Below the pieces are notes generated by a model. That model was not told the DNA's origin. It saw only the letters and a program-made list of their open reading frames with translations, and did not search any database. Positions 7,823 to 14,641 of a DNA stretch of 64,000 nt are shown piece by piece (positions within the stretch are counted from its first letter, which is position 1; every line of letters starts with the position of its first letter). The translations under genes were made by a program, and so were the position numbers. The DNA is from Coriobacteriales bacterium (GTDB lineage: Bacteria; Actinomycetota; Coriobacteriia; Coriobacteriales; Atopobiaceae). The stretch covers positions 1-64,000 of the forward strand of contig JAUMWN010000001.1 in the NCBI GenBank assembly GCA_030529625.1, in the 5' to 3' direction.

Positions 7823-8307
7823 GAGCGTGCCTTTCTCTTGTGGACGAGGTGTCTTTACACCTGAGAACGATTCCAGCTTATGACAAAAACACGTCGCGGT
7901 GGCACACACAATTGCCAACGGATGTAATTGTTTGGTGGTTGGAACCACGTGTCCAATTTGTGTGGAGGTTGGCTTTGCGCACGTGGTCAAACAAAGATGA
8001 ATCGGCGCTCGCGGCTGGGGCACAAAGACGCAACATTGCTCAAAAATAGACGGCCCCCAGACGTTGGGGGCCACGAGTCGCCAGAACATAATCGCACGTG
8101 TGGGCCGTTCGCACTATTCTATTTCCGTAAACGGCATATCTTTGGGGGTGAGAGTACCGTGTTGCTTTTTTTCGGCCAACTGACCGTCGCCCACGACATC
8201 GTTTCCCAATGTGGCACAATATCCTCACGGCCCCAAGCGCCCTCAGACTTGCTAGGATGGGGGAGCTTGCCCAAACCGCACCGCATTCGTACCAGGGGGA
8301 GAGAGCC
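7823..8307. other. 485-bp intergenic region between divergent genes
   Basis: This divergent gap must hold the promoters for the GH32 gene (leftward) and the helicase-like gene (rightward). Imperfect palindromes that could be regulator sites are visible: CAATT...AATTG at about 7908-7930 and GTGGTT-GG-AACCAC at about 7934-7948. A leftward terminator-like hairpin lies at 8042-8072. No convincing protein-coding frame was found. Confidence 0.5.
8042..8072 (-). terminator. Leftward rho-independent terminator with no obvious gene before it
   Basis: An 8-bp stem (GGCCCCCA / TGGGGGCC, 8052-8072) with a 5-base loop is followed on the minus strand by a U-rich tract (TATTTTT). It lies in the divergent gap, so it does not end either flanking gene. 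It would fit the end of a small minus-strand RNA made from about 8.1-8.3 kb. Confidence 0.55.
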
Positions 8308-11300
8308 ATGACCAACAGTGAGAGGGTCCTCGCATATCTTGCCGACGTCGCCAGCCTGGGCGGCACGGAACCCTCGTTACGCGCGTTGAGTGAGCGACAT
8401 TGGACGATTGGGTTTTCCGAGCTCATACTCGGAGCCCTCACGCTAGACGTTACGCAGGGCATCCTCGAGCACTACAGCTCCCTGCATCCCGGCGTGGGCT
8501 TTGGCGAGTGCGAGGTTCCCGTAATCGCTTGCCTTGCCCGGCTGGTGGACATAGACAAACCTGCCGACCTCGGGCAGCCGCTCCTGCTTCTTCCCGGTCT
8601 TATGCATGCCGACGGAACGATCGTACCCCGCGAGGGAGAGCCTGCCTGGATACCCCTTGAGCGCGTGGCACGAGGCGGCATTGCCGACCATACCCTCACC
8701 GTTTGCGACATAGACGCCTACCGCGCCCACCAAATCGCCATGGAGAAGCTGCCCGACGACGGAACGTGGAGCAACGCAATCGTACGTGCCATGGACCTGT
8801 TCAAGGCCATATGCTCGGTAGACGACGAGCTACTTGCCAGATTCCATAGCAGGATAGAGACGGGCGAGTGCCTGCTTGGCATCTGGGAGTCGCACGACCC
8901 CATCGCCACGTCCGGCATCGTGCTGCACACGCTGCTCGACCAGACAGGACAAGACGCCAATCCTCCCCAGAGCGTTGCGACGAGCGTGCTGCAGCTTGAG
9001 GACGCAGCAGACGTTGAAGCCACTCATGATGGGGACGATGAGCGCGCCACCGACCGGGAGGGCGAGCAGACACCCCCGGGAAGCCTCTTCGTCTCGGGCA
9101 TGCCCGGGGACATGGGCTCCCTGAGTCCTGCCGAGCGCGACGCGGCTATCACCCTCGAGCGAGACGAATCAACCAGCCTGATGGCCCTGCACACGCCAAA
9201 GGGAACCAGCAGCCTGAGGATGGCGCTATCCCTCATGGGGCAGGCGCTCACCAACAGCATGTTGCGCGGGGACGAGACCCCTCTGGTGCTGTGCGTCGCC
9301 CCGCATAACGTGCTCAGCGCCCTCTCAAGGCTTCTTGACGAGCGGCCCACCGCAGGGCAGACGTCACTGTCCTCCCGCTGGCTCCCTCGCATCTCGTATG
9401 GCAAACACGATGCAAGTGCTGCGCATGCGCAGGATCGGCGCACGCTCGGACCCATCGTCTCGGTGCTCATGCAGCATACCGCCGGCGACTCGGGTGCATA
9501 CGACGGAGGCAGGGAGTTCGTACAGCCGATTGGGCATGCCACGGAGGGCGTGGGCGCCACGTTCTCGGACCCATGGTACGTGACCAGGGCAACCATGTAC
9601 TATCTGGACTGCGTGTCCGGCTTTCTTGGAACACGCATGCGCGATGTCGCGGACGCCTCTTCCAAACTCCTGGAGCGCCTGAGGCTGATAGACCAGGACC
9701 GCAGCGAGCTGTTGCTTGCATACGGAGAGGTTTGCGAAGCCTCCCTGCACATGCACCAGCGAGAGGACGTGGTGGCCCAGATGGGCAGGCTCCGCAGAGA
9801 GCATGCCGTCATGCGCAAGCGCCTATCCACGTGGGAGCGCCTCGCCAAGCGCTATCCGGTTCGCAAGAACTTCGTAACGCGCACCAGCCCCACCCAAGAG
9901 GAGGTAATCGCAAGGCACGCACACGACGGAGAGATACTGGCCCAGGGCAAGGACACCGTCGATGCCGTGCGGCAGGCCTACCAAGACGAGGTCGACCGCA
10001 TTGAGAGCGAGATAGACCGCCTCAAGGGATCCTCAGCACATCTGGCAAGACTGGTGCACGCGGCCTCCTCCGACGGCCAACGGTGCTCCCAGGCAATTGC
10101 GCGCCTCGTCGAGCGGTGCGGACTCACCACCGAGCAGGCAGCCCTGCTTGAGTCGGTAATCGACGGTCGGGACGGCACAGTTCGTGGGCTGGACGAGATT
10201 CTGGACGTGACGGTGCGACCGGCAGAGTTTTGGCTCTCGGTGCACGTGTGTGAGGCACGCTGGCTCGAGTCGTGCTCTACGCAAGGCGATGTAACTGCCG
10301 CCACAGGCAGCGCGACGCCTTACCTGCGAACGCTTGCCAACTTGTGCCCCATACACCTGGTGGACGACGATTTGGCTCCTTCGCTCATATGGGAGACGGT
10401 TCTCGAGCATGGCGTCGATCCCCTGGTCGACCTCATGGTCGTCTTGGACGCGCAGAATGTGGACGTGCCCACCGGCCTTGCGCTCCTCTCGCAGGCAAGA
10501 CGGGCCATCGTAATGGGCGTTCAAACCACCATTCGTCCGCACAGGCTGTTTGGCAGCATCTCCGATGAGCTGTTTGCGACCAGGACCATAGCGGGGGACC
10601 TGTGGGGAGACGTCGCCAAGCGCGGACTGGTCACCTCGGGGGACGCCTCACTGTTTAGCGCGGTCTTGCGGATGTCAGACGCCTGCGTGCGCAACCTCAA
10701 CACGGTGGAGGACGCGTATGGGGAGCTGCTCGACCTCAGGGATGACTTGGCCACAGACGAGCGCGTTCACACCATGCGGATTCCCGCAAGCTTTGCCGAC
10801 GACCCCTACTATCGACTAGCAAGAATCGTTCCCTCGCTCTCGTATGTGCTCGTACCCGACTCCGCCTGGGAGCAGGTGGGCGGAAGCAAGCAGAACGTTG
10901 CCGAGGCCCTGGCAATCGTGCGTTGGCTCACGGCGCGCATGGAGCGCATTGCCAAGCGATACGATCATCCGCAAACACCGTTCGTCTTGGTGACGTCGGC
11001 TTTCTCTGCGCAAGTCAAACTCATGCAATCGCTCATTGCCCAGCAGGGTGGCAACCTGACCTCGTATGTGGAGGTACGCGCCTTACATGAGATAGGTGAT
11101 GTTACGTGGCCGCTTACGCTGTGCAGCACCACCTGCGGTCCACAGAGCTATGGGAGACTCACAGGCGACAACGCCGACTCCGCACTCTGCGATGCTGCGG
11201 CTGCCTCAACCGATGCGCTGGTCGTCTTTTGCGGAAGGCCTTGGGTGGAGAGCTCACTTCCCGGCGCCATGGCACTCAAGCGACGCGCACGACTCATGGG

Positions 11301-11703
11301 AAAGCTCTTCTCGGTCGAGCGCAAGGGCAGAACGAAATCCGACGATGCTGCTCAGGCTCAGGCTGAGCATGAGACTTCCCAAAGCGAGCTTCAACCTCGG
11401 GTTGAGGATGACTTGCGCTCGAAGCCCATGTCGCTCACGCGTCTGCTGCAGCATCTCTCGCTTTCGGGGGAGTTTGCGCACATGCCATCCACGCACGACG
11501 TCAACCTGGCACTCTCGCGCGTAGGCCTCATCCAGCGTTATGCGGACGCTTCCGGACACTCGGGATGGAGGCCAACCGCTTCGGGCAGGGAGATTGGCAT
11601 CGTTCCTGCCACCGACCGCATGGGAAACCCGTTCTGCACCTACGCCGCCTCTGCTGAGCCAGTGCTTCACACCATAGTGGAGGGACTCGTCAAGCAGCAG
11701 TGA
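8308..11703 (+). CDS. Large protein resembling an inactivated UPF1/DNA2-type superfamily 1 helicase
   Basis: A 1131-aa protein. Its layout follows UPF1/DNA2-like SF1 helicases, but the catalytic motifs are eroded. The Walker A position reads HTPKGTSSL (about residues 293-301) rather than GPPGTGKT, lacking the Lys. It is followed by LVLCVAPHNVLSALSRLL, which fits motif Ia. A charged coiled-coil insert spans about 490-585. The Walker B position reads VVLDAQNVD (about 709) rather than IDEASQ. The motif III region has GVQTTIRP where GDxxQLxP is expected. Later, FVLVTSAFSAQVKLM (about 892) resembles the second RecA domain, but motif VI has CDAAAAST instead of NVALTRA. The last ~80 residues form a separate small domain (VNLALSRVGL...GWRPTASG). 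The ATG at 8308 follows GGGGGAGAGA. The fold assignment is inferred from pattern, not searched. Confidence 0.6.
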   Translation: MTNSERVLAYLADVASLGGTEPSLRALSERHWTIGFSELILGALTLDVTQGILEHYSSLHPGVGFGECEVPVIACLARLVDIDKPADLGQPLLLLPGLMHADGTIVPREGEPAWIPLERVARGGIADHTLTVCDIDAYRAHQIAMEKLPDDGTWSNAIVRAMDLFKAICSVDDELLARFHSRIETGECLLGIWESHDPIATSGIVLHTLLDQTGQDANPPQSVATSVLQLEDAADVEATHDGDDERATDREGEQTPPGSLFVSGMPGDMGSLSPAERDAAITLERDESTSLMALHTPKGTSSLRMALSLMGQALTNSMLRGDETPLVLCVAPHNVLSALSRLLDERPTAGQTSLSSRWLPRISYGKHDASAAHAQDRRTLGPIVSVLMQHTAGDSGAYDGGREFVQPIGHATEGVGATFSDPWYVTRATMYYLDCVSGFLGTRMRDVADASSKLLERLRLIDQDRSELLLAYGEVCEASLHMHQREDVVAQMGRLRREHAVMRKRLSTWERLAKRYPVRKNFVTRTSPTQEEVIARHAHDGEILAQGKDTVDAVRQAYQDEVDRIESEIDRLKGSSAHLARLVHAASSDGQRCSQAIARLVERCGLTTEQAALLESVIDGRDGTVRGLDEILDVTVRPAEFWLSVHVCEARWLESCSTQGDVTAATGSATPYLRTLANLCPIHLVDDDLAPSLIWETVLEHGVDPLVDLMVVLDAQNVDVPTGLALLSQARRAIVMGVQTTIRPHRLFGSISDELFATRTIAGDLWGDVAKRGLVTSGDASLFSAVLRMSDACVRNLNTVEDAYGELLDLRDDLATDERVHTMRIPASFADDPYYRLARIVPSLSYVLVPDSAWEQVGGSKQNVAEALAIVRWLTARMERIAKRYDHPQTPFVLVTSAFSAQVKLMQSLIAQQGGNLTSYVEVRALHEIGDVTWPLTLCSTTCGPQSYGRLTGDNADSALCDAAAASTDALVVFCGRPWVESSLPGAMALKRRARLMGKLFSVERKGRTKSDDAAQAQAEHETSQSELQPRVEDDLRSKPMSLTRLLQHLSLSGEFAHMPSTHDVNLALSRVGLIQRYADASGHSGWRPTASGREIGIVPATDRMGNPFCTYAASAEPVLHTIVEGLVKQQ

Positions 11704-11848: not shown

Positions 11849-12592
11849 GTGAACGAGAGCAGCAAGGACATAGACTACGCCATCAGGGGCTTGGTCGCTC
11901 CCGAAATCGCCAAGTCACAGGCGGCGGGTGTGGTTACGGCACCCTTGGGATCCTCGGAGAACCCGTCAAACAGGGTACTCACGGTGGCAAACGTCATCAC
12001 GGCATGTCGCTTTGTGCTCACGATGGTCTTTTTGGTGCTGTTCGTGCGAAACGAGGAGCAAACGCGCATGATCGCCCTCGTATGCTACGCCGTGGCCGCA
12101 TGTACCGACTTCCTGGACGGTCAGGTCGCGCGCCGTACGCAAACGGTGAGCTGGGTGGGCAAGATCATGGACCCCATCATGGACCGCATCCTGTTGTTTA
12201 CCGGCGTGATCGGCTTGATGGCTGTGGGCGAGCTTCCCATCTGGGTGGCCGTGTTCGTGGTGGCACGTGACGCATACCTGGCAGTTTGCGCCATGCTCCT
12301 GCAGCGCTACCAGCACAGGCCCATGGACGTGATATATGTGGGAAAGGCGGCAACTGCACTGCTCATGACCGGATTCGTGGATCTGCTCATAGGATTGCCC
12401 ATAATCGCGGGCTTAGGGCTGGTACAGGTCGCATGGCTTCCTGGCCTCAATGGTACCCCTGCGGCCCTGGGCATATTCTGTGTCTATGCGGGGCTCGTTT
12501 GCTCGTTCACGGCCGCGGTAATATACACCGCCAAGGGCCTACGCATACGAAGCAGGGTGATTGCTGAGCGCAGGGAGGGGGAGTCTCGTTGA
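11849..12592 (+). CDS. CDP-alcohol phosphatidyltransferase family membrane protein
   Basis: A 247-aa membrane enzyme with the full family motif D-x2-DG-x2-AR-x8-G-x3-D-x3-D, seen as DFLDGQVARR followed by GKIMDPIMD (about residues 90-115). The Asp residues bind metal and the CDP-lipid. About six membrane segments follow. The family joins CDP-diacylglycerol to an alcohol such as glycerol-3-phosphate. This is a paralogue of the housekeeping pgsA at 35905, so it may use a different acceptor. The long polar N-terminus (about 40 residues before the first membrane helix) is unusual. The start is GTG at 11849. Its stop overlaps the TTG start of the carboxypeptidase gene. Confidence 0.85.
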   Translation: MNESSKDIDYAIRGLVAPEIAKSQAAGVVTAPLGSSENPSNRVLTVANVITACRFVLTMVFLVLFVRNEEQTRMIALVCYAVAACTDFLDGQVARRTQTVSWVGKIMDPIMDRILLFTGVIGLMAVGELPIWVAVFVVARDAYLAVCAMLLQRYQHRPMDVIYVGKAATALLMTGFVDLLIGLPIIAGLGLVQVAWLPGLNGTPAALGIFCVYAGLVCSFTAAVIYTAKGLRIRSRVIAERREGESR

Positions 12593-13785
12593 GTTGCAAG
12601 ACGTGCATGCGCCCGCTCGCAATAGTCCTTTGCTCGATTTGCGCGCTCGCCTTTGTGCGTCTGTGCGTGTTGGTACCGCAAGCGACCCTTGCGGCCCAAA
12701 TAGACTCCGAGCCCGAGCTTGAAGAAGCCGAGGGCGCCGCATTGCTGGACACGGGTGGCAACGTCCTGTACGCATATAACGAAGAGGAGCGCTTTCCGCC
12801 CGCCTCAACCACAAAGGTTATGACAGCCATGGTGGCCCTGGACTCCGGTCGCTCCCTCGACGAGATGGTCACGATCCGCGAGGATGACTTGGGCGAGGGC
12901 GGCCAGCTTGCCGACTATGGCGACGGCGACCAGGTGCCCCTGGGAGAGCTCATGCAGGTTATGCTGGTCTACTCGGGCAACGACGCGGCATACAACACCG
13001 CGTGCCACATAGCGGGGAGCGAAGAGGCCTTCGCCAAGCTCATGAATGCCAAGGCCAAAGAGATTGGCATGACCAACACCCACTTCGTCAACTCCCACGG
13101 CATGGACGTAGACGACCACTATTCGTGCGCCAAGGACCTTGCCATCATGGGAAGGTATGCGATGCAGCACTACCCCTTCATCTGCCAGACGGTCGTTATG
13201 GAGGAGGCACAGACCACCGTCCGCGGCTATCCCACGGTGCTTAAGGCAACCGACCAGCTCCTGGGCAAGTTCGACGGCATTCGCGGGGTGAAGTCGGGTG
13301 CTGTAGCCGACGGCTACTCCTTCGTTGGTGCCTCGGGTCGAGGTGATGTCCAACTCTACTCCGGCGTGATCGGGTGCAAGACACCCATGGGCCGATTCAA
13401 CGACACGGCCACCCTCATGGAGTGGGGCTACGAGAACTTTGGCGAGTACACCATTTCCAATTCCTCTTGGGTCACCAGGATGCAGCCCTATGCCTACGAC
13501 TTTGGCTACAAGGTGCCGCTCAGCGCCGTCCAGGACGTTACCTGCTCCCTGTGGCCCAACATCAAGGACGTGTCGTACAAGAGCGTGCTCGTTCGCCCCA
13601 ACGCCCTGATGGGCACCAACAGCATATGCGGATGGGCTGACTGGAACCAGAAGGGCCGCAAGATGGGCGGAGCCCTGTATGGCACGCACGAGCGACCGGT
13701 AAGGCAATCGTCCTGGCCGCTGTTCGTCTCTGCACTCTTTGACGAGCCCGACCCGATGGGAGAGGGGGGACTCGATGAACAGTGA
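12589..13785 (+). CDS. dacA: D-alanyl-D-alanine carboxypeptidase (PBP5/DacA family, S11)
   Basis: A 398-aa secreted penicillin-binding protein that trims the terminal D-Ala from peptidoglycan stem peptides. It has a hydrophobic signal segment (residues 7-31, ending ATLAAQ). The three active-site motifs follow: SxxK as PASTTKVM (about residue 69), SxN as YSGNDAA (about residue 128) and KSG as VKSGAV (about residue 232), in place of the classical KTG. The TTG start overlaps the upstream stop and has GGGAGGGGG before it; an ATG 18 bases further in is an alternative. The 3' end overlaps the following gene by 11 bases. Confidence 0.92.
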   Translation: MSCKTCMRPLAIVLCSICALAFVRLCVLVPQATLAAQIDSEPELEEAEGAALLDTGGNVLYAYNEEERFPPASTTKVMTAMVALDSGRSLDEMVTIREDDLGEGGQLADYGDGDQVPLGELMQVMLVYSGNDAAYNTACHIAGSEEAFAKLMNAKAKEIGMTNTHFVNSHGMDVDDHYSCAKDLAIMGRYAMQHYPFICQTVVMEEAQTTVRGYPTVLKATDQLLGKFDGIRGVKSGAVADGYSFVGASGRGDVQLYSGVIGCKTPMGRFNDTATLMEWGYENFGEYTISNSSWVTRMQPYAYDFGYKVPLSAVQDVTCSLWPNIKDVSYKSVLVRPNALMGTNSICGWADWNQKGRKMGGALYGTHERPVRQSSWPLFVSALFDEPDPMGEGGLDEQ

Positions 13786-14641
13786 TATGGACCATCCAAA
13801 GCTTGGCGCGCTCTACGAGGAGCACATGATTCTGGGGGCGACGTTTGGGCCGTCGCTGGAGCCTGTGGCCTATGTGGGCGACGCGGACGTTCTGGCAGGC
13901 GAGTGTCTGGCCGATGGCGCGCTGGTGTGTGATGCATCCATGGCAAAGATGCTCTTGCTAGGTGGTTCTGACGCCGCAGGATACATGGCCACGACCTGTG
14001 CCGGTCCCTTGCTAGACGTGGGGGGATGCGGCTTTGGGGCCGTGCTCACCGGAGACGGGGGCGTCGCCTCCATCCCGCTGATCGCGCGTACGGGCGACAG
14101 CGAGTATGTGCTGTTTGACGCCTCAAGTCGCGCCGACGTGCTGGAGGGGTGGCTCTCGTTTGTGGCAGCCATAGAGCAGGATGGCGTCGCGCCCTTTGCA
14201 AACCTTGACTGCGAGGACGTCTCGCGGTCACATGTGGTACTCGTTCTGACAGGCAGCAAGGCGGGCCATGTGCTGGCAGACTACACGCGCGCCCGCGACC
14301 TGCCCGCACCCGGGAGCGTGTGCTCTTGCATGCTGGACCGCATTCCTTGTATCGTGGCGCGATTGGACGTGGAGACGCCCACCTACCTGCTCCTGGTGCC
14401 CCCAAGGCAGGCCAGGGCCTTGTGGCGCAGCCTGCTCTCCTTCGTTGAGGTAACGCCCGTGGGGCTTGACGTCATGCGCGACCAAATGCTTCGCATGCTT
14501 CCCTGGGGCAGACACCTGCGCGAGGATGGTCGTCTGCGCATTACTGTCGACGAGCTTGGGTATCATGGTTTGGTGCGCGACGCGACGGACTTCGTGGGCG
14601 CGCGGGGCCTGATGCAAGATGATGGGGGGAATGCGCAGTGA
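13775..14641 (+). CDS. GcvT/YgfZ-like folate-binding domain protein
   Basis: A 288-aa cytosolic protein. The N-terminal part follows the aminomethyltransferase (GcvT) and YgfZ pattern. The opening is LGATFGP...EPVAYVGD. A segment with ALVCDASMAKMLLLGGSDAAGYMATT follows, in the position where the family has D-x-S-x-x-G-K-x-x-x-x-G-x-D-A. Then come DVGGCGFGAVLTGDGGV and a strand ending YVLFDAS. It is shorter than GcvT and lacks the neighbouring gcvH/gcvP genes, so glycine cleavage is unlikely. A YgfZ-like role is possible but unproved. The ATG at 13775 overlaps dacA and follows GAGAGGGGGG. The stop overlaps the ridA start (GTGA). Confidence 0.6.
   Translation: MNSDMDHPKLGALYEEHMILGATFGPSLEPVAYVGDADVLAGECLADGALVCDASMAKMLLLGGSDAAGYMATTCAGPLLDVGGCGFGAVLTGDGGVASIPLIARTGDSEYVLFDASSRADVLEGWLSFVAAIEQDGVAPFANLDCEDVSRSHVVLVLTGSKAGHVLADYTRARDLPAPGSVCSCMLDRIPCIVARLDVETPTYLLLVPPRQARALWRSLLSFVEVTPVGLDVMRDQMLRMLPWGRHLREDGRLRITVDELGYHGLVRDATDFVGARGLMQDDGGNAQ

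What the first reader, a model, noticed from the sequence alone, without database searches (positions are those of the whole stretch)
8308..11703. Giant pseudo-helicase: UPF1/DNA2-like layout with all catalytic motifs lost
The order of elements matches SF1 helicases. However, the Walker A Lys, the Walker B Asp-Glu, the motif III Gly-Asp/Gln and the motif VI Arg are all replaced, while the frame of 1131 codons is intact. A coiled-coil insert and a separate C-terminal domain are retained. An intact large gene without catalysis suggests a conserved structural or decoy role, possibly nucleic-acid related or defensive.
Basis: partly seen in the sequence, partly recalled or inferred. Interest (0 to 1): 0.7.

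Follow-up and report, generated by a model that had tools for sequence, protein, structure and literature searches.

The report
Dead defence helicase kept genus-wide
A large gut-bacterial gene is a helicase that has lost every part needed to burn ATP, yet all 16 sampled species of its genus still carry it, at the same chromosomal spot wherever this could be checked; it descends from the motor protein of a known anti-phage defence system (Mokosh), so a defence motor appears to have become a non-motor protein with a new, still unknown job.

Summary
Window 8308-11703 (+) is an intact 1131-codon gene laid out like an SF1 helicase, with every ATPase motif destroyed. Single-sequence Pfam, NCBIfam and PDB searches find nothing. 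With relatives it is clear: all 16 genomes of the genus carry it, 15 of 15 testable ones directly upstream of pgsA. Two genomes of another genus carry a diverged copy at the same spot. It aligns end to end with active helicases that have perfect motifs (profile-profile E 7e-68) and matches PADLOC's MkoC profile (Mokosh type II, E 6e-34; all 13 full-length orthologs match). In the tree the dead proteins form one clade (100/100), beside active coriobacterial MkoC-like helicases and apart from PLD-bearing MkoC. The Walker A Lys is lost in 14 of 15 full-length copies; the Walker B Asp-Glu pair and motif VI Arg in all 15. dN/dS is 0.08-0.16, lowest in the coiled coil. It is neither a decaying pseudogene nor a functional Mokosh system, but a defence-derived helicase, probably inactivated once, retained under purifying selection as a core gene. 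Its present role (best guess: an ATP-independent nucleic-acid-binding scaffold) is inferred, not shown. AlphaFold was uninformative because only two sequences could be used.

The parts
8308..11703 (+). Pseudo-helicase gene, 1131 aa plus stop
   Evidence: Intact ORF; orthologs in 16/16 genomes of the genus; end-to-end homology to active MkoC-like helicases
8308..8907 (+). N-terminal domain (aa 1-200), colinear with the N-terminal part of MkoC
   Evidence: hhalign from residue 3; MkoC stretch begins at aa 93
9073..9567 (+). First RecA-like domain, first half (aa 256-420)
   Evidence: Alignment with active homologs
9190..9219 (+). Dead motif I / Walker A (aa 295-304; Lys302 is Ser)
9637..10119 (+). 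Coiled-coil insert (aa 444-604); an insert also lies here in PLD-bearing MkoC but not in the coriobacterial active homologs
   Evidence: Two long helices 444-515 and 530-604, the only parts of the AF2 model with pLDDT above 70; lowest dN/dS of the large regions in three of four pairs; region occupancy
10189..10272 (+). Conserved segment LDxxLDxTVRPAEFWLxxHxxExxWL (aa 628-655), shared by active and dead members
10429..10461 (+). Dead motif II / Walker B (aa 708-718; DEAGQ -> LDAQN)
10510..10539 (+). Dead motif III (aa 735-744; GDxxQ -> GVQTT)
10648..11322 (+). Second RecA-like domain (aa 781-1005)
   Evidence: Profile of A1 (which includes two active rows) matches SEN1, UPF1, DNA2 and SMUBP2 chains here
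11080..11109 (+). Dead motif V (aa 925-934; HALQG -> HEIGD)
11182..11217 (+). Dead motif VI (aa 959-970; SRAK -> AAST)
11413..11700 (+). C-terminal domain (aa 1036-1131) in place of the PLD nuclease of MkoC; weak winged-helix similarity
   Evidence: sub-threshold only
11849..12592 (+). pgsA-like gene, constant downstream neighbour (not part of the protein)
   Evidence: Adjacent in 15/15 testable genus genomes and in two genomes of genus g32; the name is my reading of the sequence

Best explanation
The gene encodes a catalytically dead, vertically inherited descendant of a Mokosh type II-like (MkoC, COG1112/UPF1-type SF1) helicase. Shown by sequence: homology to active helicases; loss of the ATPase motifs across the whole dead clade; one fixed locus upstream of pgsA; purifying selection. 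Inferred: the protein no longer translocates or hydrolyses ATP by the helicase mechanism. It works as an ATP-independent scaffold that holds nucleic acid, or a protein partner, with the static two-RecA platform, the coiled-coil arm and the C-terminal (possibly winged-helix) domain, as the dead helicase domains of AddB and RecC do. It is now a housekeeping rather than a mobile defence gene.
For: MkoC profile hit E 6.4e-34 for the window and in 13/13 full-length orthologs. Active relatives hit MkoC at 1e-168 to 6e-203 and have perfect motifs. Dead-versus-active profile comparison 100%, E 7.4e-68 over 954 columns. Motif invariants of active proteins are lost preferentially: 7 of 45 kept inside motifs against 34 of 78 outside, Fisher p 0.0015. 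Present in 16/16 genus genomes, 15/15 testable upstream of pgsA, with no recognisable helicase upstream of pgsA in the 16 family genomes without the dead gene that were read. dN/dS 0.075-0.155 on the closer pairs against 0.06-0.21 for neighbouring genes. Single clade 100/100 on the tree with outgroup. No full-length active MkoC found in the genus, so it is not obviously a subunit of an active paralog. AddB/RecC precedent: PMC4824097.
Against: Nucleic-acid binding is not tested. Motifs Ia and V, which contact nucleic acid in SF1 helicases (general knowledge), are degraded along with the ATP motifs, so binding may be lost too. G011 still has GTGK, so residual nucleotide binding in some species is possible. 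The C-terminal winged-helix call is sub-threshold (best Pfam E 0.0019; PDB 0.02) and its model is poor (mean pLDDT 54.7). The protein evolves faster than most neighbours (41-46% identity in comparisons where pgsA is 65%).
Confidence: 0.6

Rival explanations
1. It is still an anti-phage protein: a non-catalytic sensor or decoy that recognises phage nucleic acid or a phage protein and signals without ATP hydrolysis.
For: The nearest described relatives are MkoC defence helicases. At least one active relative sits among UvrD-PD-(D/E)XK, AAA-M41 peptidase, HD/dGTPase-like and DUF2726 genes, a defence-like neighbourhood.
Against: Core, single-copy and fixed next to pgsA in every testable genome, unlike the patchy, relocating distribution typical of defence genes; no effector domain (PLD absent) and no evident defence genes next to it in the window.
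Confidence: 0.18
2. It is a protein-protein scaffold with no nucleic-acid role: the coiled coil and the LDxxLDxTVRPAEFWL segment are what selection preserves, possibly linked to phospholipid synthesis (pgsA) or the neighbouring genes.
For: The coiled coil has the lowest dN/dS of the large regions in three of four pairs (0.04-0.12 over the four). Linkage to pgsA is constant. A stand-alone small protein carrying the same segment exists upstream of uvrA in G012 and G013.
Against: The second RecA-like domain and the C-terminal domain are about as conserved as the coil (46% and 49% mean pairwise identity against 43%), so the whole fold is retained.
Confidence: 0.17
3. It is a decaying pseudogene that happens to be open.
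For: Catalytic residues drift to many different letters (position 302 is S, R, A, G, W or K in different species), as expected for a released site.
Against: No stop in any of the 13 full-length genus copies or the 2 in g32; dN/dS well below 1 in every large region.
Confidence: 0.01
4. It is an unusual but working ATPase that uses replacement residues.
For: G011 keeps the Walker A Lys; most genus copies have an Asp at the motif II Glu position (LDA for DEA).
Against: Q-motif Gln, Walker A Thr (14 of 15), the motif II Asp-Glu pair, motif III Gln and motif VI Arg are all gone, with no common replacement at most of these sites.
Confidence: 0.04

Closest known systems
MkoC, the single protein of Mokosh type II anti-phage defence (PADLOC PDLC03924)
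   Same: Same N-terminal region, helicase core, position of a coiled-coil-like insert and a conserved segment around LDxxLDxTxRxxxFxLAxHxxExxWL; significant profile hit in all full-length orthologs.
   Different: All ATPase motifs destroyed; the PLD nuclease end of MkoC is absent and another domain takes its place; core syntenic gene instead of an accessory one.
Active coriobacterial MkoC-like helicases without PLD (L017/L026, L018/L025, L071/L084; genera g12, g5, g4)
   Same: Nearest relatives in the tree; share the same C-terminal domain.
   Different: Perfect motifs I-VI; no coiled-coil insert; scattered loci unrelated to pgsA.
AddB and RecC inactivated SF1 helicase domains (PMC4824097)
   Same: An SF1 helicase fold that lost its motor motifs and is kept as a non-motor module.
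   Different: Those are UvrD-like, sit in helicase-nuclease complexes and read Chi; here the ancestor is UPF1-like and no nuclease partner is evident next to it.
UPF1 / SEN1 / DNA2 / SMUBP2 SF1B helicases
   Same: Best PDB sequence matches of the family profile, in the second RecA domain.
   Different: Only distantly related; these are working motors (general knowledge).

Membership tests
Mokosh type II (MkoC) | Significant match to the MkoC profile over helicase and N-terminal regions | tested here: met
   E 6.4e-34, aa 93-745; 13/13 full-length orthologs
Mokosh type II (MkoC) | Intact SF1 helicase motifs | tested here: not met
   Motifs I, II, III, V, VI and Q-motif lost
Mokosh type II (MkoC) | C-terminal PLD nuclease domain (PMC10013915) | tested here: not met
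   Pfam finds PLDc_2 in Vibrio and Rhizobium MkoC but lists none for the window, and no PLD family is among those shown for its orthologs
Mokosh type II (MkoC) | Protects cells against phage | not testable with these tools
   Needs an experiment
UPF1-like (COG1112) SF1 helicase, as an evolutionary family | Homology over both RecA domains | tested here: met
   hhalign 100%, E 7.4e-68, 954 columns; 13 of the 15 A1 members match AAA_12 at E <= 1, though the window itself does not
UPF1-like (COG1112) SF1 helicase, as an evolutionary family | Two-RecA fold in a confident model | tested here: inconclusive
   AF2 with 2 sequences, mean pLDDT 30
Inactivated SF1 helicase module (AddB/RecC type) | Helicase homology with motor motifs lost and the gene conserved | tested here: met
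Inactivated SF1 helicase module (AddB/RecC type) | UvrD-like ancestry and a nuclease/helicase partner gene next door | tested here: not met
   UPF1/MkoC-like ancestry; the repeating neighbours are pgsA and dacA-like, ridA-like, FHA, MerR-like and apt-like genes (these names are my reading of the sequences)
Pseudogene | Disrupted frame or dN/dS near 1 | tested here: not met

The most novel reading that the evidence does not exclude
An anti-phage defence helicase (MkoC lineage) was captured at the pgsA locus before the split of two coriobacterial genera, lost its motor once, and became a core housekeeping scaffold in which the coiled-coil arm and C-terminal domain do the work: a bacterial pseudo-helicase domesticated from immunity.
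Probability: 0.5. Interest if true: 0.72.

Novelty: new variant of a known kind. Interest (0 to 1): 0.62.

Why it matters
Conserved pseudoenzymes are well studied among kinases, but bacterial pseudo-helicases are few (AddB and RecC are the standard examples). This one has active relatives, a probable single inactivation, and 15 full-length dead copies, all with open frames and widely diverged from one another. That makes it a good case for asking what a helicase platform does without its motor, and how a defence gene becomes a core gene. It also warns that a MkoC profile hit need not mean a working Mokosh system.

Tried and rejected
Single-sequence searches of Pfam, NCBIfam and PDB found no helicase and would have misled; relatives were needed. 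Viral-contig scans found no relatives. The genome-contig scan gave only the nearest ortholog. An active MkoC partner in the genus was looked for and not found: other SF1 helicases there match mainly the second half of the MkoC profile, and those read have other architectures. The idea that the coiled coil was gained with inactivation was dropped: PLD-bearing MkoC also has an insert there, so the active coriobacterial proteins more likely lost it. Promoter/terminator scan uninformative. Literature searches for a described bacterial pseudo-helicase of this lineage found none in the held library; that is weak evidence of novelty.

Full report
What is there. Window 8308-11703 (+) is an intact 1131-codon ORF. 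The mechanical ORF begins at 8209, but the nearest ortholog supports 8308 as the start. Alone, the protein has no meaningful match in Pfam, NCBIfam or PDB.

Relatives. A search of 80 related genomes finds it in all 15 other genomes of the genus (with the window, 16 of 16; 35-74% identity), and weakly in two other genera, whose homologs carry textbook motifs. Family and order searches (140 and 397 genomes) add two genomes of another genus, coded g32, with degenerate homologs, and active homologs in genera g4 and g29; no match at E 1e-10 lies outside the family.

Homology is secure. Dead-only against active-only profiles give 100% probability and E 7.4e-68 over 954 columns. An HMM of five active proteins finds all 13 full-length genus copies at about E 1e-41 or better, with no shuffled or reversed control listed. 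The combined family profile (13 dead plus two active rows) matches SEN1, DNA2, UPF1 and SMUBP2 chains in PDB.

What kind of helicase. The PADLOC MkoC profile (Mokosh type II) matches the window at 6.4e-34 and all 13 full-length orthologs; the active coriobacterial relatives match at 1e-168 to 6e-203. Mokosh type II is described as an N-terminal RNA helicase plus a PLD nuclease (PMC10013915). The Vibrio and Rhizobium MkoC proteins examined have that PLD domain. The coriobacterial proteins, active and dead, carry instead a domain of about 95 residues with weak winged-helix similarity.

What is broken. Of 123 positions invariant in five active proteins, 41 are kept in the genus, 26 partly kept and 56 lost. 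Losses concentrate in the motifs: 7 of 45 kept there against 34 of 78 elsewhere (Fisher p 0.0015; the motif windows were drawn by me). The Walker A Lys is lost in 14 of 15 full-length dead proteins (G011 keeps it). The Q-motif Gln, the motif II Asp-Glu pair, the motif III Gln and the motif VI Arg are lost in all 15; the Walker A Thr in 14. The g32 copies still have the Gly-Asp of motif III, a partly intermediate state.

What is kept. dN/dS on the closer pairs is 0.075 to 0.155, against 0.06 to 0.21 for neighbouring genes on the window-G015 pair; the coiled coil is the most constrained large region in three of four pairs (0.04-0.12). dS is above 1 for several pairs, so the ratios are rough. The protein evolves faster than most of its neighbours.

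Where it sits. It lies directly upstream of pgsA in 15 of 15 genus genomes where the contig allows the test, and in the two g32 genomes. In 16 other genomes of the family, including one g32 genome, no recognisable helicase precedes pgsA. The genes upstream of the dead helicase vary. Active relatives sit at other loci; at least one is in a defence-like neighbourhood.

History. With Vibrio and Rhizobium MkoC as outgroup, the dead proteins form one clade (100/100); the three coriobacterial active proteins branch next to it with their order unresolved, and a tree that groups the g32 copies with the active ones is rejected (p-AU 2.4e-6). One inactivation before the g1/g32 split is the simplest history; separate completion of the decay in the two genera (g32 keeps motif III Gly-Asp) is possible. 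PLD-bearing MkoC has an insert of about 110 residues where the dead proteins have their coiled coil, so the coil is probably ancestral and was lost in the active coriobacterial line.

How it probably works (inferred). Without the Q-motif Gln, Walker A and B and the motif VI Arg it cannot plausibly use the helicase ATP cycle. The conserved platform, coil and C-terminal domain suggest a static scaffold binding nucleic acid or a partner, comparable to the dead helicase domains of AddB and RecC (PMC4824097). Motifs Ia and V are also degraded, so a purely protein-binding role is a serious rival, as is a retained non-catalytic defence role. Structure prediction could not decide.

Verdict. The new points are the ancestry (MkoC/Mokosh), genus-wide fixation at pgsA, and evidence of selection.

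Noticed in passing
L088:6580-7347 (G013:C7) and L023:1117-1806 (G012:C67): A small 236-265-codon ORF directly upstream of uvrA ends in the same LDxALDTKVRPLEYWLAIHxxExxWL segment as the pseudo-helicase; 54% identity between the two species; seen only in these two of 16 genus genomes.
   Followed up: partly
L081:1222-4233 and L073 (G152:C1:267345-270496): The active MkoC-like homolog of G152 appears frameshifted near motif V: the part with motif VI continues in another frame; a broken copy or an assembly error.
   Followed up: no
L071/L084 (G128) and L073 (G152): In G152 the C-terminal domain of the MkoC-like protein occurs twice in tandem. In G128 the helicase is followed by a 600-aa protein without any Pfam or PADLOC match, a possible partner.
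   Followed up: no
L086:7927-10956, L091:5496-8558 (G013:C4, G001:C110): Several genus members carry another full-length SF1 helicase with intact motifs and what looks like a nuclease-type C-terminus; unrelated to the pgsA locus.
   Followed up: partly
window 13739-14641: The 300-aa ORF two genes after pgsA is a conserved neighbour in most of the loci read and evolves about as fast as the pseudo-helicase (43-67% identity, dN/dS 0.21-0.33); its function was not examined.
   Followed up: no
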